Source: Semisulcospira habei (Eukaryota > Mollusca > Gastropoda > Semisulcospiridae). Taken from it: a stretch of 64,000 nucleotides of DNA. Of this stretch, positions 41,636 through 60,164 are shown piece by piece (position 1 is the stretch's first letter; each line of letters starts with the position of its first letter). The stretch is from the NCBI GenBank assembly GCA_036245525.1, contig BTPG01000001.1, positions 176,191,664 to 176,255,663 of the forward strand, written 5' to 3'. The translations under genes and the position numbers were made by a program. Under the pieces are notes generated by a model. The model had not been told where the DNA came from, searched no databases, and saw only the letters and a program-made list of their open reading frames with translations.

Positions 41636-41866
41636 TTACATAGAAACATTTTCGGGAATAATTCCCTGTTTAACAAGAAGGTCTTTCGTGGCGATTGACG
41701 CTGTTACAACTACAATTAGCTTAGCGCTGTCTTCGAAATCGAGTCTACTGAGGTCTGGTGATTTCATTTTGAGTAGATTTTTTCCCAGCATAGAAAACGT
41801 TACTGCTAATGCACTGATTACTGCAGAGTGATACACAAGATTCATTAAATTCTTTGAGTCATTCAT
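41636..41866 (-). CDS. Polinton 76-aa protein, copy B
   Basis: Starts MNDSKNLMNLVYHSA. It has a hydrophobic N-terminal half (SALAVTFSMLGKNLL), then LSRLDFEDSAKLIVVV, a likely second hydrophobic segment, and KDLLVKQGIIPENVSM. This is the intact form of the gene frameshifted in A. The 11-bp gap to the next gene on the same strand suggests co-transcription. Function unknown. Confidence 0.58.
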   Translation of the reverse strand: MNDSKNLMNLVYHSAVISALAVTFSMLGKNLLKMKSPDLSRLDFEDSAKLIVVVTASIATKDLLVKQGIIPENVSM

Positions 41867-41901
41867 TTCTTAGGCAAGAAAAAATTAAAATAATAAATTT
41901 A

Positions 41902-42399
41902 TTACTGCATGATAAATGGGTCGACAACTTTGGGTATTGTTGGTAATGTGGCGACTTCTGTTTTTGATGATGGAGTGTTTAATTTTTTGGTCACTGTACG
42001 AGTCTGTGGCTTGTATTTTTTGTATAATTGGTAAGCTACAAAACCAGATCCGACAACAAATGCGGCAACTGCATATCTTGCTGTTTCAGAATTAGACTGG
42101 GTTGAAGGTCTTTCACTTTGATGTGTGTGTGACAGGGGTGCCAGTCCTGACGGTCCTACCGGTCCTACCAGTCCTACCGGTCCTACCGGCGGTGTTGACG
42201 GCGGGTCACTTACATGAGCCTTTTCTGTTAGCGCCTGTAGCTGTAACTTTTTCTGCTTGTTCCATTCAGCTAAACGTTTACCTGCCTGAATTCTGCCTTC
42301 ATTTTTAATTTTTGTCACTGTGTGAATCGGGGTCTTGGCAGGATCCGAAACAGGGTTCATCTGTGGGGTCGTTTGGGGGGTCGTCTGTTGGTCGTCCAT
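41902..42399 (-). CDS. Polinton basic single-span membrane protein with collagen-like repeat (165 aa), copy B
   Basis: ATG at 42397-42399 (MDDQQTTPQ). It shares the GRIQAGKRLAEWNKQKK signature and the C-terminal membrane span (about 118-138) with A and C, but the linker is replaced by a run of Gly-Pro-Val type triplets (GPVGLVGPVGPSG, about 80-92) encoded by a 9-12-nt tandem repeat at about 42142-42192. Longer than A (131) and C (133). Its 5' end overlaps the split 171-aa family gene. Confidence 0.55.
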   Translation of the reverse strand: MDDQQTTPQTTPQMNPVSDPAKTPIHTVTKIKNEGRIQAGKRLAEWNKQKKLQLQALTEKAHVSDPPSTPPVGPVGLVGPVGPSGLAPLSHTHQSERPSTQSNSETARYAVAAFVVGSGFVAYQLYKKYKPQTRTVTKKLNTPSSKTEVATLPTIPKVVDPFIMQ

Positions 42400-42539
42400 T
42401 TTTATCAACAAAAAAATTTAATTTCGTAAAATCTACATGGCTGCTAGTTACAATTAATGTTACCAGAGGAGCCAGCAAATTACCAAATCTGTAGAATAAA
42501 AGGCAAGCTAATTTACCAATTGCACTCGTTACAATGGGG
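42305..42539 (-). pseudogene. 171-aa family gene of copy B, 3' part (split by element C)
   Basis: Encodes the C-terminal part from IVTSAIGKLACLLFYRFG onward, joining directly, after removal of C, to the LESNP end of the 5' part at 58417-58739. The intact homologues read SNPIVSSSIGKL across the same point, so the insertion point lies inside the coding sequence. Confidence 0.88.
42534..42539. other. Target-site duplication of element C, left (ATGGGG)
   Basis: ATGGGG precedes the AGAGAAAG terminus; CTGGGG follows the right terminus at 58417-58422. Five of six bases match, and the uninterrupted coding frame of B predicts ATGGGG. Confidence 0.8.
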
Positions 42540-42865
42540 AGAGAAAGTATATAGGAGAATACAACGACACCCATTTAAGAAACAATTGATTTATTTAATC
42601 CTTTCCGTAAATAAACAAACGCACTTGACCAAATTCATTTAACAGATTTATCTGCCCAGTCAGGTCCCCCAACCCCTTGGAAACAAAAGGCTAGTTAAAA
42701 TATCTTCCCGAGAAATACACACCACCCACCCCCACCCCACCCCCCACACACACACACACCCCCACACCCCACCACTCAATGCTGTCAGAGTTGGCCTTCC
42801 TGAGAAATAGTGTCTACTTCCTGTTCATACCACCATAGTAAACAATAGTCCTCTGTGCCCAAATA

Positions 42866-42916
<51 letters not shown>

Positions 42917-43520
42917 CACACAAAACAAATTAGCATTCCTTTTTGTGTCAACGCTTCAATGTATGTCACTAAACCACTATGTCATTTTTCTTACTCTGGG
43001 GCAAACCAAAAATATAGAACAAATCTCTAATATAGGTTATTTCTTAAATGTGGAACACCACGTCGTTCGTAAATGAAACGTCCAACGTGAAAATTTATCT
43101 GTGAAAAGTTTTCACTTCACACATCGTGACTGCTTCGACGCACACGGACATTGCGCTGTTGAACAATCGGCCTTTGTGCTCAAGACTGTCGCGTGATGAA
43201 ACCGGATTCCTGTTGGGTGCAGTTATTGCCGTCATAACCTGTAGGTAGAGACAGCTGTTGTGTAGTCATGTGAGTTTACAAGATTGCATCTATTCCACAA
43301 CCAGAAAGTTGGGCTTGAAAATTGGTTGTGAAACGGTTTCCTGTTTTCGCTCCAGTGGGTGACAATCAGCCTTTCATACAGTTATTTATTACCCTGTCGC
43401 GTGATGCCTTTAAATTGAAACCCACAACTTTAATCCCAGGAGAGACATCAATTATTCAATTTAGTATACACCCCACCATGTTTTACAAGTGTTTTAGATC
43501 ACTCGAGGAGAAAATCGGGG
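42540..43520 (+). repeat. Left terminal inverted repeat of element C
   Basis: 42540-43363 matches 57594-58416 almost without difference. From 43364 to about 43520 the match continues but with many substitutions and gaps (for example GTCGCGTGATGC and AGATCACTCGAGG remain). Contains a (CT)n run at about 42869-42913. Confidence 0.9.
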
Positions 43521-43865
43521 AGTGAGTTGTTAGTTTGAACCAGATCACGGACATTGCCTTGTCCTGTTATGCATTTAAATTGAAACCAGATCACGGACAT
43601 TTGTGTTGCGTGCTGTTTACCCAACCAACATGATAATGGCGGACCTATCTGTGATTTTAGACCTTGCAGCTTCTGGGTGTAAGGTCTAAAATCACAGACC
43701 GCACACCGTCACTGACGTCCAAGTAGGGAGAAAATAAAACCAGACAAGCTTTTCGTAGTCATTATTATAAGGCTTGCGGTGTGAGTGGTTAGTTTGAAAC
43801 CCCTTTTATAACCAGAAAGGCAAGCATAGTGTTTTTGTACAAACAGATTATATTGTGTTTTTAAA
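43521..43865. other. Spacer between left repeat and ATPase of C, with hairpin
   Basis: No gene. AAACCAGATCACGGACATT occurs twice (about 43538 and 43582). A perfect 16-bp stem, TGTGATTTTAGACCTT (43650-43665) with its complement at 43681-43696, encloses a 15-bp loop. The last 25 bp, ATTATATTGTGTTTTTAAAATG, correspond to the ATPase leader that in A and B directly follows the capsid gene. Confidence 0.7.
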
Positions 43866-44471
43866 ATGGACTTAATGACGCACGATTCACATTGCGGCCT
43901 ATTTTGTGGCGCCACTTCGTGTGGGAAGACTGAATTTGTTCTTAACCTCTTACAAACAAGATACCTTCATCATTTCGAAAACATTGTAATATTTTGTCCA
44001 ACAATCAAACACAACAAAGCTTATCACAACCGTTCATTCATTTGGACTGACAACAACATATACTTAGTCGACCCTGAGAAAAAACTGAATGATTACCTGC
44101 TATATTTTTACAAGCAATTTGAAGGACAGCCAACATTGTTCATAGTTGATGACTGTTCTGCAGAGAAAGACATTGTCAAAAAGAGAAACATATTAGCAGA
44201 ACTTGCCTTCAGTGGCAGACATGCAAACATAAGTGTATGGATTCTCACTCAGAAATATAATGCTGTACTGAAAGATTTTCGAGAACAGTTAAAGTTTATC
44301 TGTTTGTTTTACTGTAAGGACCGTGACAGCTTTGAAGACTGTCTCAGAGAGAACGATGTCATTCCAAATAAGCAAGAACGGGATGATGTAAAAAATAAAC
44401 TGAAATCAACTAAGCATCTAAAGCTCATTTTGAAGACAGATCAACCCACTGGGTATGGATTAGTAAATTAA
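43866..44471 (+). CDS. Packaging ATPase, intact (201 aa), copy C
   Basis: Walker A is GATSCGKT (glycine to serine at a non-critical position) and Walker B is unchanged. Starts MDLMTHDSH. It is the first gene after the left terminal repeat, unlike in A and B where it follows capsid. C-terminal KHLKLILKTDQPTGYG is present, as in A. Neighbouring small gene begins about 27 bp downstream. Confidence 0.85.
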   Translation: MDLMTHDSHCGLFCGATSCGKTEFVLNLLQTRYLHHFENIVIFCPTIKHNKAYHNRSFIWTDNNIYLVDPEKKLNDYLLYFYKQFEGQPTLFIVDDCSAEKDIVKKRNILAELAFSGRHANISVWILTQKYNAVLKDFREQLKFICLFYCKDRDSFEDCLRENDVIPNKQERDDVKNKLKSTKHLKLILKTDQPTGYGLVN

Positions 44472-44498
44472 TTTATACTTTTGGGTTTGTCTTTAAAA

Positions 44499-44843
44499 AT
44501 GACAGACAGACAAAATTGGCCTATTAGTGAAATCATAGATATTACACATTGCTTTAAAGATGTTAAATATAAAAGCCAGCTTAATAATAGAGAGTCACCT
44601 GGTAATTTATTTATTATACCAACAACAGTGTATATGTCTGGTAATATAACTTTTTATGTTGATAATCCATTTATTAAAAAAATAACTGTTGATATTAAGA
44701 CACAATCATTTATTATTAATGAATATTATGATGGTTGGTTTACTAAATTGTGTAGTAATTTAGCAAAAGAGCTAAATAAAATAAATTTATATTTTAACGA
44801 TATTACATTTAATAAAATGGTATTACACATACAAAATCAATAA
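44499..44843 (+). CDS. Fast-evolving small Polinton protein (114 aa), copy C
   Basis: MTDRQNWP start after TTTGTCTTTAAAA. The segment NWPI is shared with A, and FKDV and VDIKT with B, so it is intermediate between them. NKMVLHIQ near the end is conserved. High isoleucine/asparagine content reflects AT-rich codons. Function unknown. Confidence 0.5.
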   Translation: MTDRQNWPISEIIDITHCFKDVKYKSQLNNRESPGNLFIIPTTVYMSGNITFYVDNPFIKKITVDIKTQSFIINEYYDGWFTKLCSNLAKELNKINLYFNDITFNKMVLHIQNQ

Positions 44844-44953
44844 TTATAAACACATGTGTAAATAAATTTGTTTATTGTAGGAGTTACAGTCAATAAAGTG
44901 CCATTTTCATTATATAATTTTCTATTTATTTTTTTGTCGGACAAATAAAAAAG

Positions 44954-47900
44954 ATGGACAACCGTCAAAGATTAAGAAACGTGTTTCACACAACTGACTT
45001 ACCTATATATAATATTTACAATGTCTATGAATCAATAGAAAGATCTTTTTTAGTCATACAAAATAACCTTCTTTCTGATAGTGTAAAGATTCAGATTGTT
45101 GCAAAAATAGAATTTGTCAGAGATGTTGGTAAAGTTATTGTAACGTATATCTCGACAAGGCAGCACACAGTTAATTCGAGAAGAGAACTAGAGAAAGTGT
45201 TTAGAGAAAGATTGTTACCAGACTTCCATGAAGCAATTGACAGAGCAGAAATGCAAGGGTCTGGCTGGCATGAAGGCCTTGTACATGAACTACAACTAAA
45301 GCAGTCAAGATATCATCCTATTTTAGGCAAATCATGGATACCACTTCCAACTGAGGTTGCAAAAAAAAAGGCTGTCGTCAATATTCAGAACAATGATAAT
45401 TTATGTTTCATGTGGTGTGTGCTTTCTAAACTTCATTTTGTAAAAACAAAACCTGAACGTGTATCTAACTATACCAAATTTATAAACGAACTCAACTTCA
45501 GTGGCATTGAGTTCCCTGTTAAAATAGAGGACATAGACTTGTTTGAAAAACTAAATCCTGGTATATCCGTGAATGTGTTTGTATGGGATAATCAATCTGA
45601 GAATAAGTTACAGCCAATTAGAGTATCACCAATTGCCCCAACATATAGACAGTCAGAAGATAAACATGTTGATATGTTGCTAATAAGCTCTGGTGATAAC
45701 TTTCACTACACAATTATCAGAAATATGTCACGTCTAATTCATAATCATGTATCAAAACATAATGGTAAACAGGAAGTGTGTAAGAGATGTTTACAAAGAT
45801 TCTCCTCTATTGCAGTGGCACATAAACACATTCTACATTGTAGGTCAGCTGATGACATACAAACTGTACTTAAGTATCCAGAGTCTGGTAGTCAAGTGTA
45901 TTTTAAAAACTATGGGAATCAACAAAAGCTGCCGTTTGTAGTATACGCAGATTTTGAATCACTCGTCGTTCCATATGAAGGTCCAATTCCAGAGTCATTA
46001 CCAAAGACTATAAAATTGAGTGACCAAGTGGTGTGTTCTTTTGGATACATTATTGTTAGGTCAGACGGTCTTCATTCAGAGCCTGTTATCTACAGAGGTG
46101 AAAATGCAGCATGTCTGTTTTTAACAGAAATGAGACATCTGTATAGTCAGGTAGTACAGTATCTCACAACATGTCAGATGCCTTTGGTGATGACAGAAGA
46201 AGACAAACTGAAATTTGATACAGCTGAGATGTGTTGGATTTGTGAACAGCCTCTGGGGGGTGATAAAGTTCATGACCATGATCACATAACTGGATGTTAC
46301 AGAGGTGCTGCACATAGCAATTGTAACTTATTATTAAAAATAATCCTAAGACATATAAGTTACCTATCTTTTTCCACAATCTCAAAGGATATGATTCACA
46401 TATTATCATGCAGGCTGTGGATGAGTCTTACAAAAAAATTAGTTGCATTGCCCAGACAACTGAAAAATACTTGACTTTTAGGTTAGACAAATTAGCATTT
46501 TATGACTCCATGCAACATCTGTCTTTAGGGTTGGCTAGTCTAGCAGAAGGACTGACTGAGTATCCAATAACAAGTAAATATTTTGAGCCAGAATTGATTA
46601 AGAAAGGAGTCTATCCATATGAGTACATCAGTGACTGGGTAGTTTTTGAAGAAACAAGACTGCCACCAAAAGAGAAATTTTATTCTACACTAACTGGTAA
46701 AGGTATTTCTGACTCTGAATATCAACACGCACTTGATGCATGAGGGAAGTTAGGATGTCAGACAATTGGTGATTACCATGACCAGTACTTGAAAGCTGAC
46801 GTTTGTTTGCTAGCAGACGTATTTGAAAGTTACCGTGAGAAGGGTTTGTTACACTACAAACTTGACCCAGCCTGCTACATCACTAGTCCTGGCATGACAT
46901 GGGATGCATTTTTGAAATCCAGTAAGATATTTATAGACCTGTTGTCTGATCGTACGATGGGTGAAATGGTGGAACGTGGATTGAGGGGAGGGATTAGTCT
47001 AGCAGCAAACAATTATGCCAAGGCAAATAATAAATATCTTGATGACTTTGACCCCTCAAAGCCAAGGTCATTTATTACGTACGTGGACGCTAACAATTTG
47101 TACGGATTCGCGATGTGTGAATTATTACCATTAAAAAACTTTTGTTTGTATGATTTGTCACAGTATGGTATAAAAAAATTAACAAAATATATTATGGATC
47201 GAGGTCAAAATGATGAAAAGGGTTGGATCTTTGAAGTAGACCTGGAGTACCCACACCACCTACATGATTACCACAATGATTATCCGTTGGCTGTTGAGAA
47301 AATGAGTATGACGGGGAAAAAAGAAGACACTAAACTTGTACCCAATCTGAATGACAAATTTAATTACGTGTGTCACTATCGCTTGTTGCAGTTTTACATC
47401 AGACACGGGTTAGTACTAAAGAAAGTTCACAGAGGAATTCAATTTGATCAGAGTGCTTTCATGAAAGATTACATAATGAAGAACACCACATTGCGTGCCA
47501 GAGACGGCAACACTGCATTTGACAAAGACTTCTTTAAGCTTATGAACAATGCTTGTTTTGGTAAGACAATGGAAAATCCTCATCACAGAAAAGATGTGAG
47601 ACTAGTCACAACTGAATCAGGTGCAATTAAACTTACAGGTAAGCCCCAGTACACAGGGTATAAAGAATTTCATTCATCATTGTATGCAGTGTCACTCAAA
47701 AAAAAGATTGTTAAACTAGACAAGCCAGTATTCATTGGTATGGCAATTCTTGAGTTGTCAAAATTATTAATGCTTGAATTTTATTATGATTACTTCAAAC
47801 CAAAGTATCCTGAGTGTCGTCTGCTATACACTGACACTGACTCTATGATCATAGACGTATGTACTGAAGACTTTTATGAAGACATGAAAACAGAACTACA

Positions 47901-48378
47901 CATGTATGACACGTCTGATTACCCTAAAGACCATCCACTGTTTAGCACACAAAACAAGAAAGTGCCTGGAAAGTTTAAGGATGAACTAAATGGTGTGCCT
48001 ATAGTTGAGTATGTTGGACTGAGATCAAAAATGTATTCTATACTGCATCAAAAGGGAAGTCAATCCAAAGCCAAAGGTATCAAGAAAACAGCAATAAAAA
48101 ATAAAGACATTCGACATGAACATTATAAGCAAGTATTAGATGGAGAACTGATGCCTGATTATCCAAACAAAACACTGAGGTCAAATAGACACAATATTGA
48201 AATGATCCAAACACATAAGAAGTCTCTAGCAGTAGGGGACACGAAACGAGTGTTTTTCAGTAAGGAAAAAGCTTATGCACCAGGTCATTACAGACTCAAG
48301 TTATCTGAAGAAATAGCTGACGAACTGGTTGATGAACTAATCAATGAGTTAGTTGATGAAATGATTAAAAATGCGTAA
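44954..48378 (+). pseudogene. Protein-primed family B DNA polymerase, broken, copy C
   Basis: Closest to copy A (the same DDFDPSKP and LYGFAMCE wording) rather than B. A base missing near 46343 relative to A and B shifts the frame after the Cys/His cluster; a TGA at 46741-46743 replaces a tryptophan codon. The remaining reading frame 46789-48378 holds motifs LYGFAMCE, NNACFGK and YTDTDSM intact. The C-terminus differs from A and B, ending MIKNA. Confidence 0.87.
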
Positions 48379-49313
48379 CGGTGTCTGGGGGAATAATCTG
48401 TAATTCTTCTCTGACAAATGCCCTCTGAGGCGCAGGCTCATACAGATAATATATTGTTGCGTCTGGACCAGGGATTATTTTTTTTATATTATGAACAGAT
48501 GTTGACCAGATGGGGTCTGTCGCCCTGCGTCTGTCGTCGTTCTCAGCCTCCCCTGGTTGATATAAATATCTCACCTGTTTGGTAAATAAACTTGTGTCTG
48601 GAGGTGGGGTTGGCCCTTTTTTTGGCTCTGCAATTGTTTTCAATTTAATCGCATCAGCAGGCTTAGGGTGTCCTTCATTGTTCATTGCTTTTATCACATG
48701 TGGTAATCTCTTAACCCACTCCGTGTTACGGGTGTCATGCATGAGTTCCTTAGAATACTGGTAACTGAAAAGTTTCTCTGACAACTGTTTATTGAAATTT
48801 TCTACAATTGCCTGTGATCTGTGTACACCTGGAATGCCTCTTCTGACCAGTACACCATGCTTAGCAAATAACTGATTAACTGCACCTTTGAATTCTGATC
48901 CATCATCAACCTGCACTAGTCTGGGGTATCTTAAAGGGCCTCGACCATATATTTTTGTTAACTGTGGTAGCTGTTTTGTCAGATATGGGTTCAGCGTCTT
49001 TATACCTTGAAGCAATGTCTACAACAGTCAGTGCATACTTGTATCGTTTCTTTCTTATTGTGTCATGTGGTAAGAACAGGAGGTCCATTTGGTGTGTGTC
49101 ATTTGGGGTAGTGTTTTCAAAATGGGGTCTTGTTATTTTTCTTGGATCAGGTAAATATATCTGCCAAATTGCCTGTCTCTGTAACCATTGCTTGACTTGA
49201 TTGAGTGTTATATCTCCGCCCACAGTGGCATGTAATTTCTGAATAGCTGTTGCTCCTTTCCAATAGCCTGATGGAGAGTAATATATTTTTGATAGTTTAT
49301 TTTCGGCTGCCAT
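48365..49313 (-). pseudogene. Polinton integrase, frameshifted by an 11-bp deletion, copy C
   Basis: ATG at 49311-49313 (MAAENKL). HQMDLLFL with the first catalytic aspartate is in the upstream frame; about 11 bases are missing near 48955-48965 compared with copy B. The remainder (VQVDDGSEF, AIVENFNK and the C-terminal FVREELQIIP) is in another frame. Sequence is closest to B. Not a homopolymer event, so a real mutation is likely. Confidence 0.85.
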
Positions 49314-49731
49314 TTTTTCTAGCAATGAAAACTCCTGTAAAATAAACAAATGTCATTCCCACTGGAACAAAGATTATCTCCCCGTTTCTTTGTTGTGTGC
49401 TTGGTTTGTAATAGTCACTTAGTTTTGGTTTTGGGATAGACATATCTTCACCCGTGACTAAAAAATATTCCCTGATTGCTTCGTCTGTATTTGAAAACGT
49501 ATGCTGTGCGTGACCTTCAAGCCTGAGTTTTTCATTGATGAAATCAAGTTTCTCAATTCTATTCTTTTCATAATCTTGCTGGGCTTGAGCAAGTTTTTCA
49601 GATGCTTCATTATGACGTTTTAATTCTTCTGCAGATTCTTCTCTACCCATTTTTGAAAAGAGATAATTAGAGCCACTAAATGCCAGAGCATTAACCATAG
49701 CACCTCCTATCATAATAGCTATCGTCGCCAT
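49297..49731 (-). CDS. Polinton small membrane protein (144 aa), copy C
   Basis: Near-identical to B in the N-terminal half, with YKPSTQQRNGEIIFVPVGM close to the C-terminal span. The proline in the span (VPVGMTFVYF) is not in A or B. Overlaps the integrase start by 17 bp. Frame intact. Confidence 0.6.
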   Translation of the reverse strand: MATIAIMIGGAMVNALAFSGSNYLFSKMGREESAEELKRHNEASEKLAQAQQDYEKNRIEKLDFINEKLRLEGHAQHTFSNTDEAIREYFLVTGEDMSIPKPKLSDYYKPSTQQRNGEIIFVPVGMTFVYFTGVFIARKNGSRK

Positions 49732-49742
49732 AATATTTTTAT

Positions 49743-49976
49743 TTACATAGAAACATTTTCGGGAATAATTCCCTGCTTGACAAGAAAGTCTTTTGTCGCA
49801 ATCGACGCTGTAACAACTACAATTAGCTTAGTGCTGTCTTCGAAATCGAGTCTACTGAGGTCTGCTGATTTCATTTTGAGAAGACTTTTCCCCAGCATAG
49901 AATAAGCAACGGTTAGCCCGCTTATTACGGCAGAGTGATAGACGAGGTTCATGATATTATTATTTGCGTCGTTCAT
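49743..49976 (-). CDS. Polinton 76-aa-type protein (77 aa), copy C
   Basis: ATG at 49974-49976 (MNDANNNIMN); a longer non-ATG extension is ignored. Contains LSRLDFEDSTKLIVVV and KDFLVKQGIIPENVSM as in B. Intact. Upstream leader AATTAATTATTTTAATTTTTG is AT-rich. Confidence 0.57.
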   Translation of the reverse strand: MNDANNNIMNLVYHSAVISGLTVAYSMLGKSLLKMKSADLSRLDFEDSTKLIVVVTASIATKDFLVKQGIIPENVSM

Positions 49977-50012
49977 TTTCTTATACCACAAAAATTAAAA
50001 TAATTAATTTAT

Positions 50013-50414
50013 TTACTGCATGTAAAATGAGTCCAAAGGTTTTGACACTGTTGGTAATGTGGAGACTTCTTCTTTTATTTTTGGAGTGCTTGATTTTTTG
50101 GACACTGTTTGAGTCTGTGGTTTGTATTTTTTGTATAATTGGTAACCTACGTAACAGAATCCTACAGCAAATCCAGCAACTATATATTTTGTTGTTTGAG
50201 GGTTAGACTTAGTTGTTTGTCTCTCACTTTGATTAGGGAGTGACGGCTCTGGTGCTGTTGATGGTGGATCAGTTATATTATTTTGTTCTTTTTGAATCTG
50301 TAATTTTTTTTGCCTGTTCCATTCAGCCAGTCTTTTTCCAGCATCAACCCTTCCTTGACTTTTAACCTTAGTCACAGTTTGAACCTGCGTCAAAACTGGA
50401 GTCGTCTCGTCCAT
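50013..50414 (-). CDS. Polinton basic single-span membrane protein (133 aa), copy C
   Basis: MDETTPVLTQ start. Signature GRVDAGKRLAEWNRQKK, plain PST-rich linker (no collagen-like repeat) and span YIVAGFAVGFCYVGY. Resembles A more than B. The 5' end overlaps the 171-aa gene by 47 bp. Confidence 0.55.
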   Translation of the reverse strand: MDETTPVLTQVQTVTKVKSQGRVDAGKRLAEWNRQKKLQIQKEQNNITDPPSTAPEPSLPNQSERQTTKSNPQTTKYIVAGFAVGFCYVGYQLYKKYKPQTQTVSKKSSTPKIKEEVSTLPTVSKPLDSFYMQ

Positions 50415-50883
50415 TTGATACTTCTTTTTCTTCTGCAGTAAAATTTATTTTTGAAAAATCGATATAACTACTAGTTACCATCAAAGTTACGGCAGGTGCA
50501 AGGTAATTGCCAAACTTGTAAAACATGGTACATGCTAATTTGCCAATCGAACTAGAAACTATAGGGTTGCTTTCGAGATCATGAGAAAGGCTGTCAGTGT
50601 CTATTGGTATGAAGTGATTAACAGCTTTTGTGTATAGGTAAATAAGAGACCTGCTTAAATCGCGTGTCATTAGTGAAGCAATATGGTTTTCATATTTAGC
50701 ATGAAGTTTTAATAGTTCGTCAGCGGTGAGAGACTCTATGTCTTCTACCATGTATTGTTTTCCGAGATAAGTCTTTGATTTGCCTGAGACAATAACAGAA
50801 AGAATGCGTTGTTTTTTCGAGTCTAAGTCTTTGTTCTCTACCGCATTGATATCATTAAGAAGAAGTAATTCGTCTTGGTTCAT
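50368..50883 (-). CDS. Polinton helical protein (171 aa), copy C
   Basis: ATG at 50881-50883 (MNQDELLLLNDI). Intact homologue of the gene split in B; nearly the same as A. The LESNPIVSSSIGKL segment covers the point where C entered B. In C this gene's 5' side faces an internal spacer rather than a terminal repeat. Confidence 0.6.
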   Translation of the reverse strand: MNQDELLLLNDINAVENKDLDSKKQRILSVIVSGKSKTYLGKQYMVEDIESLTADELLKLHAKYENHIASLMTRDLSRSLIYLYTKAVNHFIPIDTDSLSHDLESNPIVSSSIGKLACTMFYKFGNYLAPAVTLMVTSSYIDFSKINFTAEEKEVSNGRDDSSFDAGSNCD

Positions 50884-50964
50884 TTTATAATAAAATAAAA
50901 AAAACTTTGCCTGTGAATAACTTATGAAGTTACTGTTCATGTAACTGTCTAGAATAATGTGATC

Positions 50965-51030
50965 TTACTTGATAACTAATTTCAAAGTTACCTACAACTT
51001 ACAAGTAACTTTGACGTTAGTTATCATAAG
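50965..51030. repeat. Long hairpin in the internal spacer of C
   Basis: CTTGATAACTAATTTCAAAGTTAC and, after a 13-bp loop, GTAACTTTGACGTTAGTTATC pair over about 24 bases with few mismatches. It lies between the 171-aa and 208-aa genes, at the place corresponding to the ends of A and B. Confidence 0.75.
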
Positions 51031-51099
51031 TTCTTAACCCAAGTCATAAGACACTCGGACAGATTTCTCAAGTTACAAGGACAACAAGAAAACTTTTTT

Positions 51100-51174
51100 T
51101 TAGTAATAATCTGTTGGTGGGGCTGATGGCATCAAATGAGCAGGCATGACATCTCTTTGCGAAGTGTATGACAA
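51100..51174 (-). CDS. Candidate microprotein with late-domain-like motif, copy C
   Basis: Reads LSYTSQRDVMP and ends PSAPPTDYY, homologous to 29459-29539 of B. The first codon is TTG instead of ATG, and the frame is open upstream into the end of the 208-aa gene (KQVTIGFGN). The PSAP tetrapeptide is retained, but PPEY of B is PPTDY here. An internal ATG would give a 15-residue peptide. Expression is unproven. Confidence 0.35.
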   Translation of the reverse strand: MSYTSQRDVMPAHLMPSAPPTDYY

Positions 51175-51200
51175 AAATAATGGATTACCAAAACCTATCG

Positions 51201-51827
51201 TTACTTGCTTGTAAGTTCTCGAACTTTTTTCATAGTTTCTTCTACGCCTATCTTTTTTCCTTGTTCTAAAAAAGATTTCTTTAGCTCTTCAACAATTACA
51301 GCCTGACTACGCATCTTATTCTGTATTTCAGATTTTTGTTGTTTATAGTTAGCCAAATCATCCTGGACTCGCTTAAATTCTTCGTCATCAATTTCATTAT
51401 TTTCCAAAGCCTTACTAATAATAAGTTTTATACTGCTTAGCTTAGCTCCAGCAAGTGTACTCAATGCTTCATGCTTTTGCAACTTCATATAAATTTTTTT
51501 GTTAAGGGTTTCCATACCAAAGCATGCTAGACTTGTGACAAGACCAATACCTTCAACAGCAATTCCTATAACACTTCCCACCCCCGTTGCAAAAAGAGTT
51601 ATACCTCCTACAGATAATCCGGCTGAAACCACCCCCATGGCCATTGATGTGTTGTGTACAGAATTGAAAACCGTATTGTAACGGCGTTTACACCTCGAGT
51701 ATTTTGCTTGTTCTTCTTCCAAACACTTCAACGCTTCTGTAATATTCATTAAACGAAATGAATCTGCCTTTAATGTTTTATCACGCTCAATAGGCTCAGG
51801 TGGTATTTGTGGATACAAGTTCACCAT
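51201..51827 (-). CDS. Polinton two-helix membrane protein (208 aa), copy C
   Basis: MVNLYPQIPPEP start, shorter N-terminus than B. Contains KYSRCKRRYNTVFNSV (about 42-57), the glycine-rich hydrophobic hairpin (about 60-108) and EIDDEEFKRVQDDL near 152-165. The ATG follows TTTGTCATAAAAA. Here the gene is in the middle of the element, adjacent to the 171-aa gene, the join that shows the permutation. Confidence 0.6.
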   Translation of the reverse strand: MVNLYPQIPPEPIERDKTLKADSFRLMNITEALKCLEEEQAKYSRCKRRYNTVFNSVHNTSMAMGVVSAGLSVGGITLFATGVGSVIGIAVEGIGLVTSLACFGMETLNKKIYMKLQKHEALSTLAGAKLSSIKLIISKALENNEIDDEEFKRVQDDLANYKQQKSEIQNKMRSQAVIVEELKKSFLEQGKKIGVEETMKKVRELTSK

Positions 51828-51847
51828 TTTTTATGACAAATATTTTT

Positions 51848-52726
51848 TTAATCAGCAATTACATTTTGCAACTCTTCAAAAGTATACAATTTACTAGCAT
51901 AATAAAATGCAACAAGATCAATGTGTTCAAGGTTTATGTAAGTTAGACGAACAAAAGTTGTTTTGTCAACCACCACCTTGACAGCTGGAATACTGCTCGA
52001 AACATTAATAACATCATTATTTTTTGTAATAGCAATAAAGACCTTTGATGATTCTGATACTGTTTCATCCCATGTAAGTTTAATTTCTTGTGCAATTTGA
52101 GCCTCTTTAGCAGTAGCAACAGATTTCATGATAATTTCAAATACTATTGTCGCTTCTCTAGCCACGACTAAGCTTGCTGGCATAAACACAACAGAAGTAT
52201 CTGATCTACCCTTTCTAGTTGTAAGAAGATATCTTCGTTTCTCATAATTTTCAACTTTCAGTTTTTCTCTGCTATTGTTGTCTAGGGCAAAACTTGGAAC
52301 AAGGCTTACAATAAGCGGCCCAGAATTAACAACCTTCCTAAACACTAAGGCGCCTTCATCATCAGTGTATACATAAGGACTAATAAATTCAATCTTTATG
52401 TCCCAGTCAATTGTGGGTGGTGGTGCCGGTACAGGTGAAACAACCCATTTAGTACCCACATGTATTAAGTTGTAGGGCACATTATTTACAGGTGGAGTAG
52501 GTACAGTAACATCACGTAGCTGACCAAGTTTAGGAATCTGTTTTTCACCATCTTTCATGTCAACAATTACTTTTCTCTTGTACATGCCATAGGAATCAAG
52601 TTCAAAACCATATATTTCTCCAATTTCTCCCTCTTTCTCAAAATCCTGTACGTCTGCCAAATCTTTCAACTCTGTTACTGGACATGCAACTGGTATGATT
52701 CTCGGCTTTGGACCAAGACCACTCAT
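51848..52726 (-). CDS. Polinton-associated 292-aa protein, copy C
   Basis: ATG at 52724-52726 (MSGLGPKPR). Intact and close to both A and B, with only scattered substitutions. This makes it a good marker for shared ancestry of the three elements. No recognised domain. Confidence 0.6.
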   Translation of the reverse strand: MSGLGPKPRIIPVACPVTELKDLADVQDFEKEGEIGEIYGFELDSYGMYKRKVIVDMKDGEKQIPKLGQLRDVTVPTPPVNNVPYNLIHVGTKWVVSPVPAPPPTIDWDIKIEFISPYVYTDDEGALVFRKVVNSGPLIVSLVPSFALDNNSREKLKVENYEKRRYLLTTRKGRSDTSVVFMPASLVVAREATIVFEIIMKSVATAKEAQIAQEIKLTWDETVSESSKVFIAITKNNDVINVSSSIPAVKVVVDKTTFVRLTYINLEHIDLVAFYYASKLYTFEELQNVIAD

Positions 52727-52746
52727 TTTTATAAACAAAAATAAAA

Positions 52747-53460
52747 TTATTTAATTTCCAAAACAACATAAAAATCATGCATTACAACTGGTTTACCATT
52801 CTGATTAGTTACAGATAAGCACAATGATTCAAAGAAACTAGAACCTAATTTTTTAAACTGAGAATTAGGAAATCTAGCAACCACATTTTCACAATATGGG
52901 GCAGTTCCAGTCGGCAAGCATCTTAACAAAGTTGAAGGCTTTCCATTGTGTACATTTTCAGTAGTGTTCAGTTCTTTCAAATGAACATTTAGCACTGTGT
53001 GTACTGACAAATGAACAGGATATCTGCCAGTTATTCTTGGTTTTTTTGGTGATAGTAGACTACCAACTGATTGTGACCAATCTTCATCTGGATGTGTTAT
53101 TGTTTTAAAAAATCCAAGTAATAATAAAAGACTAATTGATAAAGAAAACTGACCACTTTTCGGAAAATCAATTGAAACAAGTAAATTAGCTGGGTTTAAA
53201 GTTGCTTTAATTTTAAATTCATTTTGAAGCCATTCAGCTAAAGTACAAAAGTCATAATATCCGGCTCGTAAAGTATCACCCTTCTCAATACCATCAAGAG
53301 TTCCACTTACAGAATAATTTTCATCATCCGTTACATTAAACCACTTTACTGTGTAGAACATTTCATGGATAGCTACAGCCTTGCTACCATCACGATTATC
53401 AATCCCATTAGTTAACCACATTGGTTTGCTTGTGTCAATATTTGTTAAGGTTATAAACAT
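52747..53460 (-). CDS. Polinton-associated 237-aa protein, possible minor virion protein, copy C
   Basis: ATG at 53458-53460 (MFITLTNID). Middle section (HPDEDWSQS) matches A, not B. Ends HDFYVVLEIK. Divergent from the 408-aa gene with a 26-bp spacer. No catalytic motif. Confidence 0.58.
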   Translation of the reverse strand: MFITLTNIDTSKPMWLTNGIDNRDGSKAVAIHEMFYTVKWFNVTDDENYSVSGTLDGIEKGDTLRAGYYDFCTLAEWLQNEFKIKATLNPANLLVSIDFPKSGQFSLSISLLLLLGFFKTITHPDEDWSQSVGSLLSPKKPRITGRYPVHLSVHTVLNVHLKELNTTENVHNGKPSTLLRCLPTGTAPYCENVVARFPNSQFKKLGSSFFESLCLSVTNQNGKPVVMHDFYVVLEIK

Positions 53461-53486
53461 TTTTATTATCACATAAAAAAAAAAGG

Positions 53487-54713
53487 ATGGAATTTAAATC
53501 ACCAACCATTACCACTACAAACGCATTTCAATTCAATGTGAATGCCAAATATAATGTTGCACCTACTTATGAACAGAAAATAATTCAGTTAAATCAGCTT
53601 GATATTGCTGTGTCTGAACAAGATTTATTTCAAGTCAAAGTACCCAACCCTTTTGATCATTACCTAAACCCTCCAATAACAGACGATGCTACAGCAAGAA
53701 AGTGGTCTTCAAGCCCACTACAGATGTTTCAAAACCAACTTAACTTTGCCATACTGTGTTCTACTACAGGCTGTGGTGTTTCATTTACAGACCATTTGAA
53801 TCACTCAAACAAACTGATTAGGTCTGTGTATCGTTTCCATGTTTATTACCAGCTTAGACGTATACTGTCAGAACTGCATACACCACTACCAACTGAATCC
53901 AGTTTCAACAGGTATAACAACCCCATGGATATGAAAGCATTTGAACGCATCTGTAATGAATTTAACATAAGCACTAAGTATGACTTCACACAAAAACTTG
54001 ATGATCACCACGGCATTGGTACATTATATTATGCTTTGAGTCACAGACAATACCCTCAAGATTACTGGCCTCCCTACACTTCATTCTCATCAAAATCACA
54101 AGTCTGGTTAGGCTCAATAGAACAGAAACAATCTAACGCATGGTCAACATTTGTCTTGGACAGGAGTGACGGATTTACTCAAGCAGGAGTCGAGCGCGTA
54201 AATGAGTCTATCAGAACATATGTCTGGTGTATATTAGGTGCACAATCATTAACAAAATCTAATATTCTGAATGGAAGTGGAATTTTCGATTCGCAAAAAC
54301 AGTTTCTCGCTAATCTTGAAGATTCAGTAAATTCATCAGTTGATCTCCCATCAAGCATACAACGTTACCAAGATGTACTCAGATATGCCAGATCAAAAGT
54401 TGACTTTGTAGTTGGCACTGGGTTATACATGTTACCATCTGACCTTCAACTCCAAATGGGTACAATAACAAATTATAATAATGAAATCATTGTTGCTGGG
54501 AGTGATCAAAAACTAGGTCTCAATAAATCTGTAAATTTAGGAGGAACAACTGTGCACGTACAGTTGAAAAAAACATTACAAGTGATTACTTCCCTTGCTC
54601 CAACAGCTATACAACCAGTACAGTCAACCCCTGACACACATGAATCCGAGAGAACTGCATTGGTAATTGGCCTTACAGGAGTAGGAATATTACTTCTTTA
54701 CCTGTTTCATTAA
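53487..54713 (+). CDS. Tail-anchored Polinton structural-type protein (408 aa), copy C
   Basis: Same layout as A and B with a shorter linker. Differs from both at DDHHGIGTLYYALS and DYWPPYTSF. C-terminal anchor GLTGVGILLLYLFH. Overlaps the opposed 407-aa gene by 24 bp, as in A and B. Confidence 0.65.
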   Translation: MEFKSPTITTTNAFQFNVNAKYNVAPTYEQKIIQLNQLDIAVSEQDLFQVKVPNPFDHYLNPPITDDATARKWSSSPLQMFQNQLNFAILCSTTGCGVSFTDHLNHSNKLIRSVYRFHVYYQLRRILSELHTPLPTESSFNRYNNPMDMKAFERICNEFNISTKYDFTQKLDDHHGIGTLYYALSHRQYPQDYWPPYTSFSSKSQVWLGSIEQKQSNAWSTFVLDRSDGFTQAGVERVNESIRTYVWCILGAQSLTKSNILNGSGIFDSQKQFLANLEDSVNSSVDLPSSIQRYQDVLRYARSKVDFVVGTGLYMLPSDLQLQMGTITNYNNEIIVAGSDQKLGLNKSVNLGGTTVHVQLKKTLQVITSLAPTAIQPVQSTPDTHESERTALVIGLTGVGILLLYLFH

Positions 54714-55913
54714 ATAACCTATCATTAACCCTCCTACTGTCACCAAAAAGATCCAAACATGCTCCGCCATAAACCCTACTGCCTTTGCCGCTGTACTAAT
54801 CAACCAATTGACAACCGTGCCTAAAATGCCAGGTAACGAGTCTACTGCTTTCAGAGCCAATTTCTTAAGCAAGTCTGATATGTGTGACAACTGTTTCTTT
54901 ACCCACGACTGTAAGTCTTTTGGATCTGTGGGAACTGGGGTTGGTGGTGCTGGAGGTGGAGAACCACCACCCGTTACAGCCAACACAACTGTACTGATAA
55001 TAAACCCCAGAGCTGTAATTAAACTGGCAATTGTGATACCCTGTTCTCTGAAAAGTGTTTTAAGTCTCTCAGCCAGAGTAGTGTCTCCGTGAAGTATTTT
55101 CTGAATAGTTTCTCTTATTCTGTTGACCTGTGATTTCAGTTTTTCCCTTCCAATACTAATCGCTTCTAACCTCGCTGATCTTTCTATCTGCAAATCATTT
55201 AATCTGTGTTGGATTCTTTCTTTCATTTCTGTGTCAAAATTCCCATTGTCTGCGGTAGCCAGTTTCTCTTTTTCACGTTCTATGTGTTTATCAAGCTCTC
55301 CCAGTTTGGCAAGATTATTAACCATCTCACCTCTTATTGTCTGCAGTGATTTATCCAACCCTATAATCTCCCGCATTGACAAAGGTGGATCATCTATTGT
55401 TTTCAAAGCGTCATTTATTTGTCCTTCAGTAAATGAGGTTTCTTGTATCACTGTGTTTGCTATTTCTGGTAGGCTTGTTATTGGTGCCATTTCAATTTCT
55501 TGCCCTGTTGGTAACTTTGTTTGCGTGTCTTGAAGCACACTAACCAGTCTTGGCGTGATAGGAGACCCACCAATACCAAGTTGACGCAAGGCACTAACAC
55601 CACCTTCATTTTTTATTGTACTTAAAGCCCTAAACCTACTAGGGTCTTTTTTGTTAGTCAATAGTACTTTTCCTTTGTCAACAGTATTTAAATATAAATG
55701 ACCCTTGCCATCAAGTTCAAACTGGTTAGGGTCTATGTTGTCTGGGCGATTACCAACATGATCATAAAATGAGTTCACTTTGGTTTCTAAAAGTTCGTGA
55801 CGTAAACTGTAAATATTTCTTGTACCAGTCATATCTGCCATATCTGTTGTATTACCAAAATCATACGTGTCATCCATTTCAAAATCTTCATGATTAAATC
55901 CTCCCGCGGCCAT
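54690..55913 (-). CDS. Coiled-coil membrane protein of Polintons (407 aa), copy C
   Basis: ATG at 55911-55913 (MAAGGFNHED). The N-terminal 150 residues are clearly different from A and B (GHLYLNTVDKGK, GGVSALRQLGIGGS), whereas the coiled coil and both hydrophobic segments are nearly identical to A. The boundary near residue 150 looks like a recombination or domain-swap point. Intact. Confidence 0.65.
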   Translation of the reverse strand: MAAGGFNHEDFEMDDTYDFGNTTDMADMTGTRNIYSLRHELLETKVNSFYDHVGNRPDNIDPNQFELDGKGHLYLNTVDKGKVLLTNKKDPSRFRALSTIKNEGGVSALRQLGIGGSPITPRLVSVLQDTQTKLPTGQEIEMAPITSLPEIANTVIQETSFTEGQINDALKTIDDPPLSMREIIGLDKSLQTIRGEMVNNLAKLGELDKHIEREKEKLATADNGNFDTEMKERIQHRLNDLQIERSARLEAISIGREKLKSQVNRIRETIQKILHGDTTLAERLKTLFREQGITIASLITALGFIISTVVLAVTGGGSPPPAPPTPVPTDPKDLQSWVKKQLSHISDLLKKLALKAVDSLPGILGTVVNWLISTAAKAVGFMAEHVWIFLVTVGGLMIGYLMKQVKK

Positions 55914-55954
55914 TGTTTTTATTAATTTAATTTTTTTTATTGTGCATAATAAAA

Positions 55955-57238
55955 ATGACACAGTCCTACGGATCAAAGTTAGACCCACACAGAAAACTAC
56001 GTGAACCTTTCGGTGTTAAAGCAGTTAGACAATCAATTGTCATCACAAACAATCCTAGTACTATAGACCAAAACCAGACTCTTACTGTCAAGTTTCCAAA
56101 CCTAGGCCCCAGTGACGTTATTGTTCCTGGTACTGCTCGTCTTGCTTTTAATATTGAACTTTCATCGGACGCAGATGACAAAAGAACACTAGTTAACAAT
56201 CTAGGTAGAGCAATTATTAAGAATATTAAAGTTAAACTTGAAGGACAGGAAGTGTTTAGTCTTGACGATGCTGATGTGTTCTACTGCTACACGGATTTGT
56301 GGCTTACAAGAAAAGAATGAGAAGATCGTATTTATCAAGGCATACAGTCAGATAGCATTATGAAAATTCGAATAAATGCATCAGACAAAACAACCACAGA
56401 AGGCAAGGACGTTATTGTAGCCGAAACATATGGAAATAGGTTTTGCATTCCACTCGAATTTGAAATCCTAACAGGACATTCGCCTTATTACCAAGGGGCA
56501 CTAAATGACCGCCTGAGTTTTGAACTAACCTTCAATGATTACTCCAAAGTTATAAAATCAACGGATCTCAATGCATCATATAAGATCTCTAACATATCCT
56601 TGGAATATGAGATTGTCACGCATACTGAACTAGCCAGACTCATTCAAAATCAGTACCAGTCAAGACTTCCAATTTATTATGATCGAGTGATTAGACACAG
56701 TTTATTACCCAAAGACAAGAGCGACCAAATTTGGAGTATAAACCTAAACACGCCTGCTAGGTCACTAAAAGGCGTTCTTATGTTATTTGTTGAACCAAAA
56801 AGTCCTTACCAAGGAGATTCAGAAAAATTTTACAATCCGAAAATTACACATTTATCCTGTACAATCGAAGGCCGACCTAATCAAATTTTTGCGTCTGGAA
56901 TGATGGGATATCAGCACTATGATGAGATCACAAAGTATTTTGCTGGGGGAAGACTTAGAGAAAAATCAGCAAATATTGCGTGCAAAGATCTGCATCTGTA
57001 TGACGTAAGAATCGGTGAATACCTGACAGACAAGTACGCACTGTGGCTAGATCTGCGTTCTACGGACGACAATTTCCTTCATGGTTCTGGCCGTATTATC
57101 GAAAACGGTAGTGACGGAATCTCAATTCAAATACAGAAAAAAACAGAAACCGATGGATTAATAAATATATATCTATATCTGATTTTTGACGCTCAGTTAA
57201 ACATAGCTGAGAGCAGGCTAAGTAGTCACATATATTAA
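55955..57238 (+). pseudogene. Major capsid protein, Polinton type, with internal stop, copy C
   Basis: Same length as B, with TGA at 56318-56320 (about codon 122) where A and B have an arginine codon. Otherwise the frame is open to SRLSSHIY. More diverged from A and B than those are from each other. The gene ends just before the right terminal repeat region, the opposite side of the join it makes with ATPase in A and B. Confidence 0.82.
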
Positions 57239-57410
57239 AAGTATTCACTTAGCTTGGTTTTAATCCTTCACAGCCCATTTTGAATACCGAAATCACTATA
57301 AAATCCGAACGTATTAGTAGGCACGTCACGCTTGTGCTGAAACACGGACTAAACTGAAAATAAAAGGCGTCGTTTCACTGAGGTAACCGTTTCACTACCG
57401 ATTTCAACAT
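57239..57410. other. Spacer between capsid gene and right repeat of C
   Basis: After CACATATATTAAAA (the same as in B) the sequence turns at once into unrelated DNA. No gene. Confidence 0.6.
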
Positions 57411-58040
57411 TCCCAATTTTCACCTCGAGTGATCTAAAAACACTCGTAAAAACAGGGAGGGGTGTACTAGTAACTTGAATCATTTAGGTCTATCACTGGG
57501 ATTAGAGTTATTGGGTTTTGTCTTTCAATTTAAATGCATCACGCGACAGTGACTACGCAATAGCTTAAGCATAAAGACCTATTGTTCAGAAATGTCACCC
57601 GCTGGAGCGAAAACAGAAAACCGTTTCACAACCAATTTTCAAGCCCAACTTTCTGGTTGTGGAATAGATGCAATCTTGTAAACTCACATGACTACACAAC
57701 AGCTGTCTCTACCTACAGGTTATGACGGCAATAACTGCACCCAACAGGAATCCGGTTTCATCACGCGACAGTCTTGAGCACAAAGGCCGATTGTTCAACA
57801 GCGCAATGTCCGTGTGCGTCGAAGCAGTCACGATGTGTGAAGTGAAAACTTTTCACAGATAAATTTTCACGTTGGACGTTTCATTTACGAACGACGTGGT
57901 GTTCCACATTTAAGAAATAACCTATATTAGAGATTTGTTCTATATTTTTGGTTTGCCCCAGAGTAAGAAAAATGACATAGTGGTTTAGTGACATACATTG
58001 AAGCGTTGACACAAAAAGGAATGCTAATTTGTTTTGTGTG

Positions 58041-58087
<47 letters not shown>

Positions 58088-58416
58088 ACTATTTGGGCAC
58101 AGAGGACTATTGTTTACTATGGTGGTATGAACAGGAAGTAGACACTATTTCTCAGGAAGGCCAACTCTGACAGCATTGAGTGGTGGGGTGTGGGGGTGTG
58201 TGTGTGTGTGGGGGGGGGGGGTGGGGGTGGGTGGTGTGTATTTCTCGGGAAGATATTTTAACTAGCCTTTTGTTTCCAAGGGGTTGGGGGACCTGACTGG
58301 GCAGATAAATCTGTTAAATGAATTTGGTCAAGTGCGTTTGTTTATTTACGGAAAGGATTAAATAAATCAATTGTTTCTTAAATGGGTGTCGTTGTATTCT
58401 CCTATATACTTTCTCT
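57411..58416 (-). repeat. Right terminal inverted repeat of element C
   Basis: Counterpart of 42540-43520. 57594-58416 is near-identical to the left arm; 57411-57593 is diverged. Contains a (GA)n run at about 58047-58083, complementary to the left (CT)n run. Confidence 0.9.
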
Positions 58417-58422
58417 CTGGGG
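58417..58422. other. Target-site duplication of element C, right (CTGGGG)
   Basis: Follows the CTTTCTCT terminus; one base different from ATGGGG on the left. Confidence 0.75.
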
Positions 58423-58739
58423 TTACTCTCGAGGTCATTTGTGAGATTTTCAATGTCTACAGGGAGAGCGTAACTCACAGCTTTTGAATATAAGCAGACA
58501 ATTGATTTGCTCAAATCACGGGTCATTAGTGAAGCCATGTGTTGTTCATATTTAAAATGAAGTTTAAATAAATCAGCAGCCGTGAGGGATAGTATATCTT
58601 CAGTTGAATATAGCTTCCCAAGATAAGATTTCGAATGACCAGAAACCACTACAGATAAAAGTCTTTCCCTTTTTGAATCTAAGTCTATGTTTTCTACAGC
58701 GCCAATATCATTTAATAGAAGGAGTTCGTCTGTGTTCAT
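58417..58739 (-). pseudogene. 171-aa family gene of copy B, 5' part (split by element C)
   Basis: ATG at 58737-58739 (MNTDELLLLNDIG). Runs to NDLESNP, then enters the C terminus. Clearly distinct from the A and C versions in the first half (GHSKSYLGKLYSTED). The remainder is at 42305-42539. Confidence 0.88.
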
Positions 58740-58800
58740 TTTATAATGCAATTAAAAAAGATAATTTATAAACACATTTGTTTCTTTGTCAGTAAACCAG

Positions 58801-60164
58801 ACATGAGTACATTAAGCCCTCACATGTAGAACCGTTTTGTAAATGATCCCCCTCTTTTGAAAAGTAATATGTCCCCCTGTTGATCTTTGACACAACTTAG
58901 CGATTTGAAAGGGTGTAGCTATAAAGGCCATAAAGACGGGTGAGAGTCTTTTCAAAATGCGGCTCGTGTCTGAATTGAAAAGGAATGGAATGCGGCCGGT
59001 AATAGCGCGGCGTGAGGCAACACAAAAGGCGATCAACCGTGACACCACCTGGCAGCTCATGCTTACGATAAAATTGTACTGACATGAGTGTCTGTAAGTG
59101 CGTGTGTGTGTGTGTGTGTTTGTGTGTTTGTGTGTGTACGTCTGTTTGTGTGTGTGTGTGTGTGTGTGTACGTCTGTTTGATTGTGTATTTGTTTGTTTG
59201 TTTGTGTGCGCGTCTGTTTGTAAGTGTGTTTGTTTGTGTGTACGTCTGTGTGTTAGATATTACTTGTTAGTTTCTTATCAAACTGTTTATAGTGCACAGT
59301 ATAACCACCGTCTGATTTTTCGGGAACCAGCCATTGAGTAAATATGAAGTCAATTTCGAAACTCTTCTTGTCACCTCTCAGCAAATAGCCTTTTCAAAGC
59401 TGTAGAGCCGGTTTATTCATAGAGTGTTCCCTTACTAAGTTGAATAGCGACGCCCTACTGTGTCGGCGCGTTGCGACATTAGACACCACAAAGGTAAACA
59501 GGTGAGCTGGCTTGAAAAGAAGCTGATTTAAAACGTGTAAGTTTCACATGAGTGGAGTTTATGTCTGTGTTGTCAAAGCGGGTCTTTCTCTCTCTCTGTG
59601 TGCGGTAGCTAATGGGGGTTTTATTCCCATTCAATCTTAAAACCAATTTACATTTGTGGGGGGTCATGATTTTTTCGATGTGCATTTTCTTAAGGACAAA
59701 AATAAATTGTGTGAATATCGACTCAGGTGTGGTACATCGATCTAGCAGCTAAAGGATTTGAAAAGGTTTTGAGCAACGTTGTCAAAACATTGCGACGTGA
59801 TCATATTTTGTAACTGTTGTGCATATTTTATTCTGACGCGTCGTACCTAGAGTCAGCTGGCGACGGGCTGTGTTTACGTACATAGTAACATTGCGACAGT
59901 AGATATATGAGCTAATTAAGAGAGATATAAATACTGAGCGGATTGAAGTATTATTAACACAATGACTGAGTTAACCCCTTAAGTATTATTTTGGATTTTC
60001 ATAAAAATGTGGCTGTTTAAATAATGATGATTTAGGGGTAACTTCCAATGGTATTTACTCTGTGCGGGAGACATAGATATGGAGGGCCAAAAAAGATATA
60101 ATCAAGGGGGTTAACTCAGTCATTGTGTTAATGATGCTTCAATCCGCTCAGTATTTATATCTCT
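58801..60164 (-). repeat. Right terminal inverted repeat of element B
   Basis: Counterpart of 27847-29179, with an additional 60 bp near 58948-59006 absent on the left. The GT-rich tract at 59096-59250 mirrors the left CA-rich tract. The palindromic 244-bp module is at 59921-60164. Confidence 0.88.

What the first reader, a model, noticed from the sequence alone, without database searches (positions are those of the whole stretch)
42540..58416. Element C is a circular permutation of elements A and B
All genes of C occur in the same cyclic order and relative strand as in A and B, but the ends lie between capsid and ATPase instead of between the 171-aa and two-helix genes. The break is sharp: B reads ACATATATTAAAA|TTATATTGTGT across the capsid-ATPase gap, while in C the left half ends the capsid side (about 57236) and the right half begins the ATPase side (about 43845). 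Conversely, the A/B end point is a 215-bp spacer in C (50884-51099). A circular or tandem intermediate, opened at different places or given new ends, would explain this. I know of no described Polinton pair showing it, but I could not search.
Basis: partly seen in the sequence, partly recalled or inferred. Interest (0 to 1): 0.88.

Follow-up and report, generated by a model that had tools for sequence, protein, structure and literature searches.

The report
Polinton transposons with rotated gene order
Two families of virus-like Polinton transposons in one genome carry the same genes in the same circular order but with their ends at different places, which suggests that these linear elements pass through a circular or head-to-tail stage and then gain new ends.

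Summary
C (42540-58416) holds the genes of A and B in the same cyclic order and strands, opened between capsid and ATPase; the A/B end point is an internal spacer. The break is base-sharp: A and B read ACATATATTAAAA|TTATATTGTG; in C the halves lie at opposite ends. It is not an assembly error. C sits inside B, and a related copy has that site empty. All 30 left ends fetched with a C-side query start at the same TIR base. Nine of 10 paired copies have both ends; 7 show 5-6 bp duplications, 2 lie in G runs. The A/B junction matches 4,213 places; the C-type count did not complete. A second family in C order, D, has different TIRs but the same internal join, so ends are swapped as modules. I favour A/B to C/D: one distant contig has capsid next to ATPase, and the C/D spacer holds a hairpin like those beside left TIRs. 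D keeps 8 bp of the junction on both sides, which also fits the reverse. A circular or head-to-tail intermediate is inferred, not seen. Searches of the held papers listed no report of circular permutation in Polintons.

The parts
42540..58416 (+). Element C, permuted Polinton, nested in B
   Evidence: TIRs; TGGGG on both sides, with one extra base at the right end; empty site in L087
42540..43519 (+). Left TIR of C, begins AGAGA
   Evidence: 30 of 30 fetched copies start at this base
57412..58416 (-). Right TIR of C
   Evidence: 9 of 10 paired copies
43645..43701 (.). Hairpin between the left TIR of C and the ATPase gene
43846..43847 (.). Break, ATPase side: A/B homology starts here
43866..44471 (+). 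Packaging ATPase, first gene in C
   Evidence: PF04665, E 1.3e-13
44954..48378 (+). pPolB region of C, in two ORFs
   Evidence: homologue in one ORF in B
48365..49349 (-). Integrase region of C, in two ORFs
   Evidence: homologous to B 40313-41242 with rve PF00665
50368..50883 (-). Gene next to the right TIR in A/B, internal in C (start chosen from the Met shared with A and B)
50904..51032 (.). Spacer joining what are the two ends in A/B
   Evidence: 40 of 40 listed hits at 100% (rounded) over the query, one being the window; 2 of 3 D loci at 99.3-99.6%, the third without a match
50970..51026 (.). Spacer hairpin, at the position of the A/B left-end hairpin
51201..51827 (-). Gene next to the left TIR in A/B, internal in C
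55940..57238 (+). Capsid gene region, last gene in C, in two ORFs
   Evidence: B homologue models as a double jelly-roll MCP
57243..57244 (.). Break, capsid side: A/B homology ends here
27847..60164 (+). Element B, interrupted by C; TSD CAACTG
34404..35705 (+). B major capsid protein, 433 aa
35726..36279 (+). B ATPase, 20 bp after the capsid stop codon
   Evidence: PF04665, E 1.6e-15; start
36766..40278 (+). B pPolB, 1170 aa
29280..29310 (.). B hairpin between left TIR and first gene
1..12994 (+). Element A, right part; A/B order; left end at C1:176187503 (L075:804)

Best explanation
A, B, C and D are Polinton/Maverick elements of one lineage. An A/B-type genome became joined end to end without its terminal repeats, as a circle or a head-to-tail dimer. 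It was then opened at a new place, between the capsid stop codon and the ATPase start region, and received terminal inverted repeats there. The result (C/D order) was competent to integrate and spread. Shown: the rotation, the base-sharp break, many copies of both orders, target-site duplications in copies of both, and TIRs that differ between elements with nearly identical interiors. Inferred: the circular or head-to-tail stage, end capture by recombination, and the direction A/B to C/D.
For: Rotation and break. Copies: spacer query 40 of 40 listed, one being the window, 30 of 30 fetched left ends, 9 of 10 pairs, A/B junction 4,213 with 0 in the reversed control, E copies with duplications. 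Ends are modules: D shares the interior and spacer of C but not its TIR; E shares B's inner end region but hardly its outer one; A and C TIRs share positions 46-86 at 83%; A's left end holds a C-like and an A-like TIR piece further in. Direction: capsid and ATPase adjacent in L102; hairpins by left TIRs, and one in the C/D spacer where the A/B left end lies.
Against: No circle, concatemer or intermediate was seen; the genome tool reads an assembly only. The spacer has no recognisable TIR remnant. The hairpin could belong to the neighbouring gene; the C spacer resembles A's hairpin only weakly and B's not beyond shuffles. Only one distant contig polarises the capsid-ATPase adjacency; it has stops, and its gene order is otherwise different. 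The 8 bp that D keeps on both sides fit either direction. Capsid divergence in C (77-84%) and an unmatched stretch after the ATPase (44547-44857) point to further change.
Confidence: 0.5

Rival explanations
1. Reverse direction: C/D order is older. The ends of a D-like genome were joined through 8 bp of microhomology (TATTAAAA), losing both TIRs and making the capsid-ATPase junction; the circle was reopened in the spacer to give A/B.
For: D has TATTAAAA immediately left of the ATPase start region in 5 of 5 loci with a D left end, and TATTAAAA at the capsid end; joining them gives the A/B junction. TATTAAAA occurs at 0.125 per kb per strand in the window.
Against: Capsid and ATPase are already adjacent in the distant contig L102; the internal hairpin of C/D is then unexplained as an end feature.
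Confidence: 0.2
2. Translocation of one of two blocks to the other side inside a linear element, without a circle.
For: With two blocks a swap and a rotation give the same order (reasoning).
Against: It needs cuts near both ends and a third cut at the gene boundary; reciprocal base-sharp boundaries are simpler from one join and one opening.
Confidence: 0.15
3. Recombination between neighbouring or nested chromosomal copies rather than an extrachromosomal form: directly repeated A/B copies plus ends from other insertions.
For: Nesting occurs here (C in B) and A's left end carries extra TIR pieces; thousands of junction matches mean many substrates.
Against: The spacer should then hold TIR-TIR sequence; none was recognised.
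Confidence: 0.14
4. Assembly artefact.
For: None found.
Against: Independent copies with different flanks and target-site duplications.
Confidence: 0.01

Closest known systems
Polinton/Maverick elements of vertebrates (PMC8097293; passages and section 7 read)
   Same: pPolB, integrase, ATPase, capsid, TIRs; one reported end motif is (AG)3, and A, B, C, D and E all begin AGAGA; short target-site duplications
   Different: Two-module order reported as generally conserved; modules pointing away from each other in Rhinella marina are noted, and no circular permutation is named in the parts read. That Rhinella might be a rotation is my inference.
Endogenous mavirus-like elements (EMALEs) of Cafeteria (PMC8547959; passages read)
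   Same: TIR-bounded virus-like elements; truncated ones still have TIRs that 'must have regenerated'; gene order poorly conserved between types
   Different: The passages read report no circular permutation between near relatives
Endogenous polinton-like viruses of Oxyrrhis marina (PMC12721341; passages read)
   Different: The passages read do not describe a rotation with reciprocal breakpoints

Membership tests
Polinton/Maverick | rve-type integrase | tested here: met
   B 40316-41242: PF00665, E 5.4e-11
[quoted passage not shown]
   By relatives only: no PF03175 hit in the B protein itself at E 0.01; 2 of the 120 listed relatives carry PF03175, P0141 (790 aa, 66% of the query) and P0197 (1163 aa, 88%). 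Motifs DANNLYG and YTDTDS are read; their meaning is recalled
Polinton/Maverick | A32-like packaging ATPase | tested here: met
   PF04665 in B and C
Polinton/Maverick | Double jelly-roll major capsid protein | tested here: met
   Model of mean pLDDT 62, pTM 0.65; Foldseek in PDB: top PBCV-1 capsid E 1.4e-13, also Sputnik and mavirus MCP, TM 0.35-0.52. The viral library was not searched
Polinton/Maverick | TIRs and 6-bp target-site duplication | tested here: met
   TIRs met. Duplication length is mixed: B 6 bp; A 5 bp; of 9 C copies 3 have 6 bp, 4 have 5 bp, 2 are uninformative; two E copies 5 bp
Polinton/Maverick | Adenovirus-type maturation protease and penton protein | tested here: inconclusive
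   No Pfam family at E 0.01 named them among the 20 ORFs scanned; not pursued by structure
Circular permutation through a circular or head-to-tail form | Same cyclic order with reciprocal breakpoints | tested here: met
Circular permutation through a circular or head-to-tail form | Intermediate observed | not testable with these tools
   no reads available; only an assembly was searched

The most novel reading that the evidence does not exclude
In a lineage of linear, TIR-bounded virus-like transposons the position of the genome ends is not fixed: genomes are joined head to tail or into circles and reopened elsewhere, and terminal repeats are interchangeable modules, so that two rotations of one genome multiply side by side in the same host.
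Probability: 0.5. Interest if true: 0.75.

Novelty: new variant of a known kind. Interest (0 to 1): 0.62.

Why it matters
Polintons are thought to replicate as linear molecules primed by protein at their ends (recalled), so a viable rotation means that the ends can be moved and rebuilt. This links them to virophages, whose genomes are reported as circular or linear (PMC8547959 passage), gives a natural test of what TIRs must contain, and offers a route by which gene order in this virus assemblage could be reshuffled with little or no loss of genes.

Tried and rejected
Relatives in IMG/VR with the capsid alignment: 6 stretches matched, none a relative; in GTDB genomes: 30 stretches, none. With the pPolB alignment: 2 of 42 and 13 of 122 stretches were relatives; of these 15 loci only L102 shows a capsid by tblastn, and a capsid HMM found no other. 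Ends of six A/B-order copies, 12 stretches: three copies have the E end (L076/L077 and L084/L085 at both ends, L082 at one), two have a B-like TIR start (L078, L086), one (L080/L081) gave nothing. L060, L070 and L105 gave no match where one was expected. Of the 8 loci, L008 departs soon after the capsid and L001 carries the D end followed by a C-TIR-like piece. L009-L028 were fetched but only their hit rows were used. TTATATTGTG as a special recombination motif was dropped: 13 matches in the window against 9.2 expected, and a similar stretch precedes the capsid gene. C's inner regions showed no similarity to the A or B ends beyond shuffles. Misassembly rejected. The C-type copy-number pattern did not complete.
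Full report
What is there. It holds three related Polinton-like elements. A starts before the window (C1:176187503, L075:804) and ends at 12994, with a 250-bp TIR and a 5-bp flanking repeat CTGAT. B runs from 27847 to 60164 with a perfect 6-bp flanking repeat CAACTG. C, 42540-58416, sits inside B: B's homology to A stops at 42539 and resumes at 58415; TGGGG stands on both sides of C, with one extra base on the right; and a B-like copy elsewhere, L087, has the site empty with a 5-bp overlap.

The genes. The ATPase matches PF04665 in B and C, and the integrase of B matches PF00665. The 1170-aa protein of B is taken as a family B polymerase by its relatives: 2 of the 120 listed carry PF03175; Pfam did not name it directly. 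The 433-aa protein has 2,737 relatives at E 0.001 or better among 7,951 candidates, and its model, of moderate confidence, matches the double jelly-roll capsids of PBCV-1, Sputnik and mavirus. In C the polymerase, integrase and capsid regions are each split over two ORFs. They are described only.

The rotation. The tiles of C that match B's interior do so on the same strand, in two runs: C 43847 to 50903 matches the ATPase-to-last-gene half of B, and C 51069 to 57244 the first-gene-to-capsid half, with short gaps, the largest 44547-44857. At the break A and B read ACATATATTAAAA|TTATATTGTG; C has the left half at its right end, followed by GTATTCAC, and the right half at its left end. The edges coincide with gene boundaries: in B the capsid stop codon ends 2 nt before the break, and the ATPase start codon lies 18 nt after it in B and C.

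It is a family, not an accident. A 281-base query over the C spacer gave 40 listed hits, all complete and at 100% (rounded), one being the window (40 of 2,437 candidates were scored). A 221-base query at the ATPase side gave 40 listed hits (40 of 2,307 scored); all 30 loci fetched carry the C left TIR from its first base, with different flanks. These queries contain C-specific bases and so favour copies in C order. For 10 of these I fetched the expected right end: 9 have the right TIR, 7 show a duplication (3 of 6 bp, 4 of 5 bp), 2 lie in G runs and are uninformative, 1 gave no match. Landmark distances agree: among the listed hits 8 ATPase-spacer pairs lie 7.05-7.18 kb apart and 7 spacer-capsid pairs 6.1-6.3 kb apart on one strand, the window's own pair included in each. 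The A/B junction is also a family: 40 of 40 listed hits at 100% (rounded), the window's own included (40 of 1,581 scored), and 4,213 genome matches with up to 3 mismatches against 0 for the reversed pattern. The same count for C did not complete.

Ends are modules. Of the 8 loci, six (L002-L007) share about 1.1 kb beyond the capsid that is unlike the C TIR; L001 carries part of it, and L008 departs earlier. Of the six matching left ends fetched, 5 carry the inverse of it and then the ATPase; one gave no match. I call this D. D and C are 98.7% identical over the ATPase start (L069) and 99.3-99.6% across the spacer in 2 of 3 D loci. Yet to the left of the break blastn with the low-complexity filter finds nothing shared, and to the right only 148 bp; without the filter only runs of 22-27 bp turn up. 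In A/B order, 3 of 6 copies sampled have an outer end, E, unlike B's, 2 have a B-like TIR start and 1 gave nothing. E shares B's inner end region (28538-29400) at 82-98% in the two copies read there, and a 40-bp stretch further out. A and C TIRs share positions 46-86 at 83%. A's left end holds, inward of its TIR, a piece 80% like the C TIR and a second piece 86% like its own TIR. So end sequences are exchanged and stacked in this genome while interiors stay alike.

Direction. Three observations bear on it. First, in L102, a contig binned with an archaeal MAG, a degraded capsid gene (44-58% identity by segment) runs directly into an ATPase. This supports the A/B junction as the older state, but it is one contig, its gene order is otherwise different, and its host is unknown. 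Second, A, B and C and the D and E copies examined (3 and 2) each have an inverted repeat between left TIR and first gene, and C and the 2 D loci read there have another in the spacer, where the A/B left end would lie. Other inverted repeats of 14 or more exist (two palindromes in C, two weaker pairs in B, three in A's window part, one more in A's left region), and none in B's right end. In the C interior the two named are the only hairpins with arms of 18 or more and at most 2 mismatches; 40 shuffles gave 0.025 on average, at most 1 (the B hairpin, with a 1-nt loop, falls below that test's limits, and A's lies outside the slice). Folding z-scores are -4.6, -3.8 and -6.9 for C spacer, B and A. 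The C spacer resembles A's hairpin weakly (48 against a best shuffle of 41) and B's not beyond shuffles. Third, D reads TATTAAAA|TTATATTTTG left of the ATPase in 5 of 5 loci and TATTAAAA at the capsid end: 8 bp of the A/B junction are on both sides. This fits opening of a circle or dimer with a short duplication, but equally closing of a D-like circle through microhomology, which would reverse the direction. I hold A/B to C/D at about 5 to 2.

Mechanism. One head-to-tail join and one opening with new ends explains the reciprocal break. That TIRs can be rebuilt is published for virophage-like elements (PMC8547959, passages), and the D and E cases show replacement here. The join and the opening themselves are inferred. 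Against a simple story, the C capsid end is more diverged from B (77-84%) than A is from B (92-96%), while the ATPase side is not, so more recombination has probably happened there.

Literature. Searches of the held library combined Polinton, Maverick, adintovirus or transposon with terms for circular permutation, gene order, terminal repeats, excision or extrachromosomal and tandem forms. No listing showed a report of such a pair. I read passages of PMC8097293, PMC11071308, PMC5636890, PMC8547959, PMC12721341 and PMC11071296 and section 7 of PMC8097293; a word search of PMC10120064 for these terms gave no occurrence. Most papers of subscription journals are not in that library.

Noticed in passing
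window 5260-5643, 18522-18910, 21413-21801, 22945-23351, 63132-63529: A dispersed repeat of about 0.4 kb, 80-99% alike, in both orientations; one copy sits in the 3' part of A's capsid gene just before the capsid-ATPase junction, another in the capsid region of the C-order copy L001.
   Followed up: partly
L075:804-1964: A's left end carries stacked end-like pieces: its own TIR, then a C-like TIR piece (80%), then a second A-like piece (86%).
   Followed up: partly
whole assembly G000: 4,213 matches to the A/B capsid-ATPase junction, so this lineage is very abundant in the host.
   Followed up: partly
upstream of ATG of many genes in B and C: A shared A/T-rich start context ending ATAAAAATG or similar, possibly a common promoter.
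   Followed up: no
window 36766-40278: The B polymerase contains an endonuclease VII-like stretch at residues 430-474.
   Followed up: no
window 20116-21420 and 62632-63185: A G+C-richer repeated segment with ORFs; inverted copies 93% alike over 475 nt.
   Followed up: no
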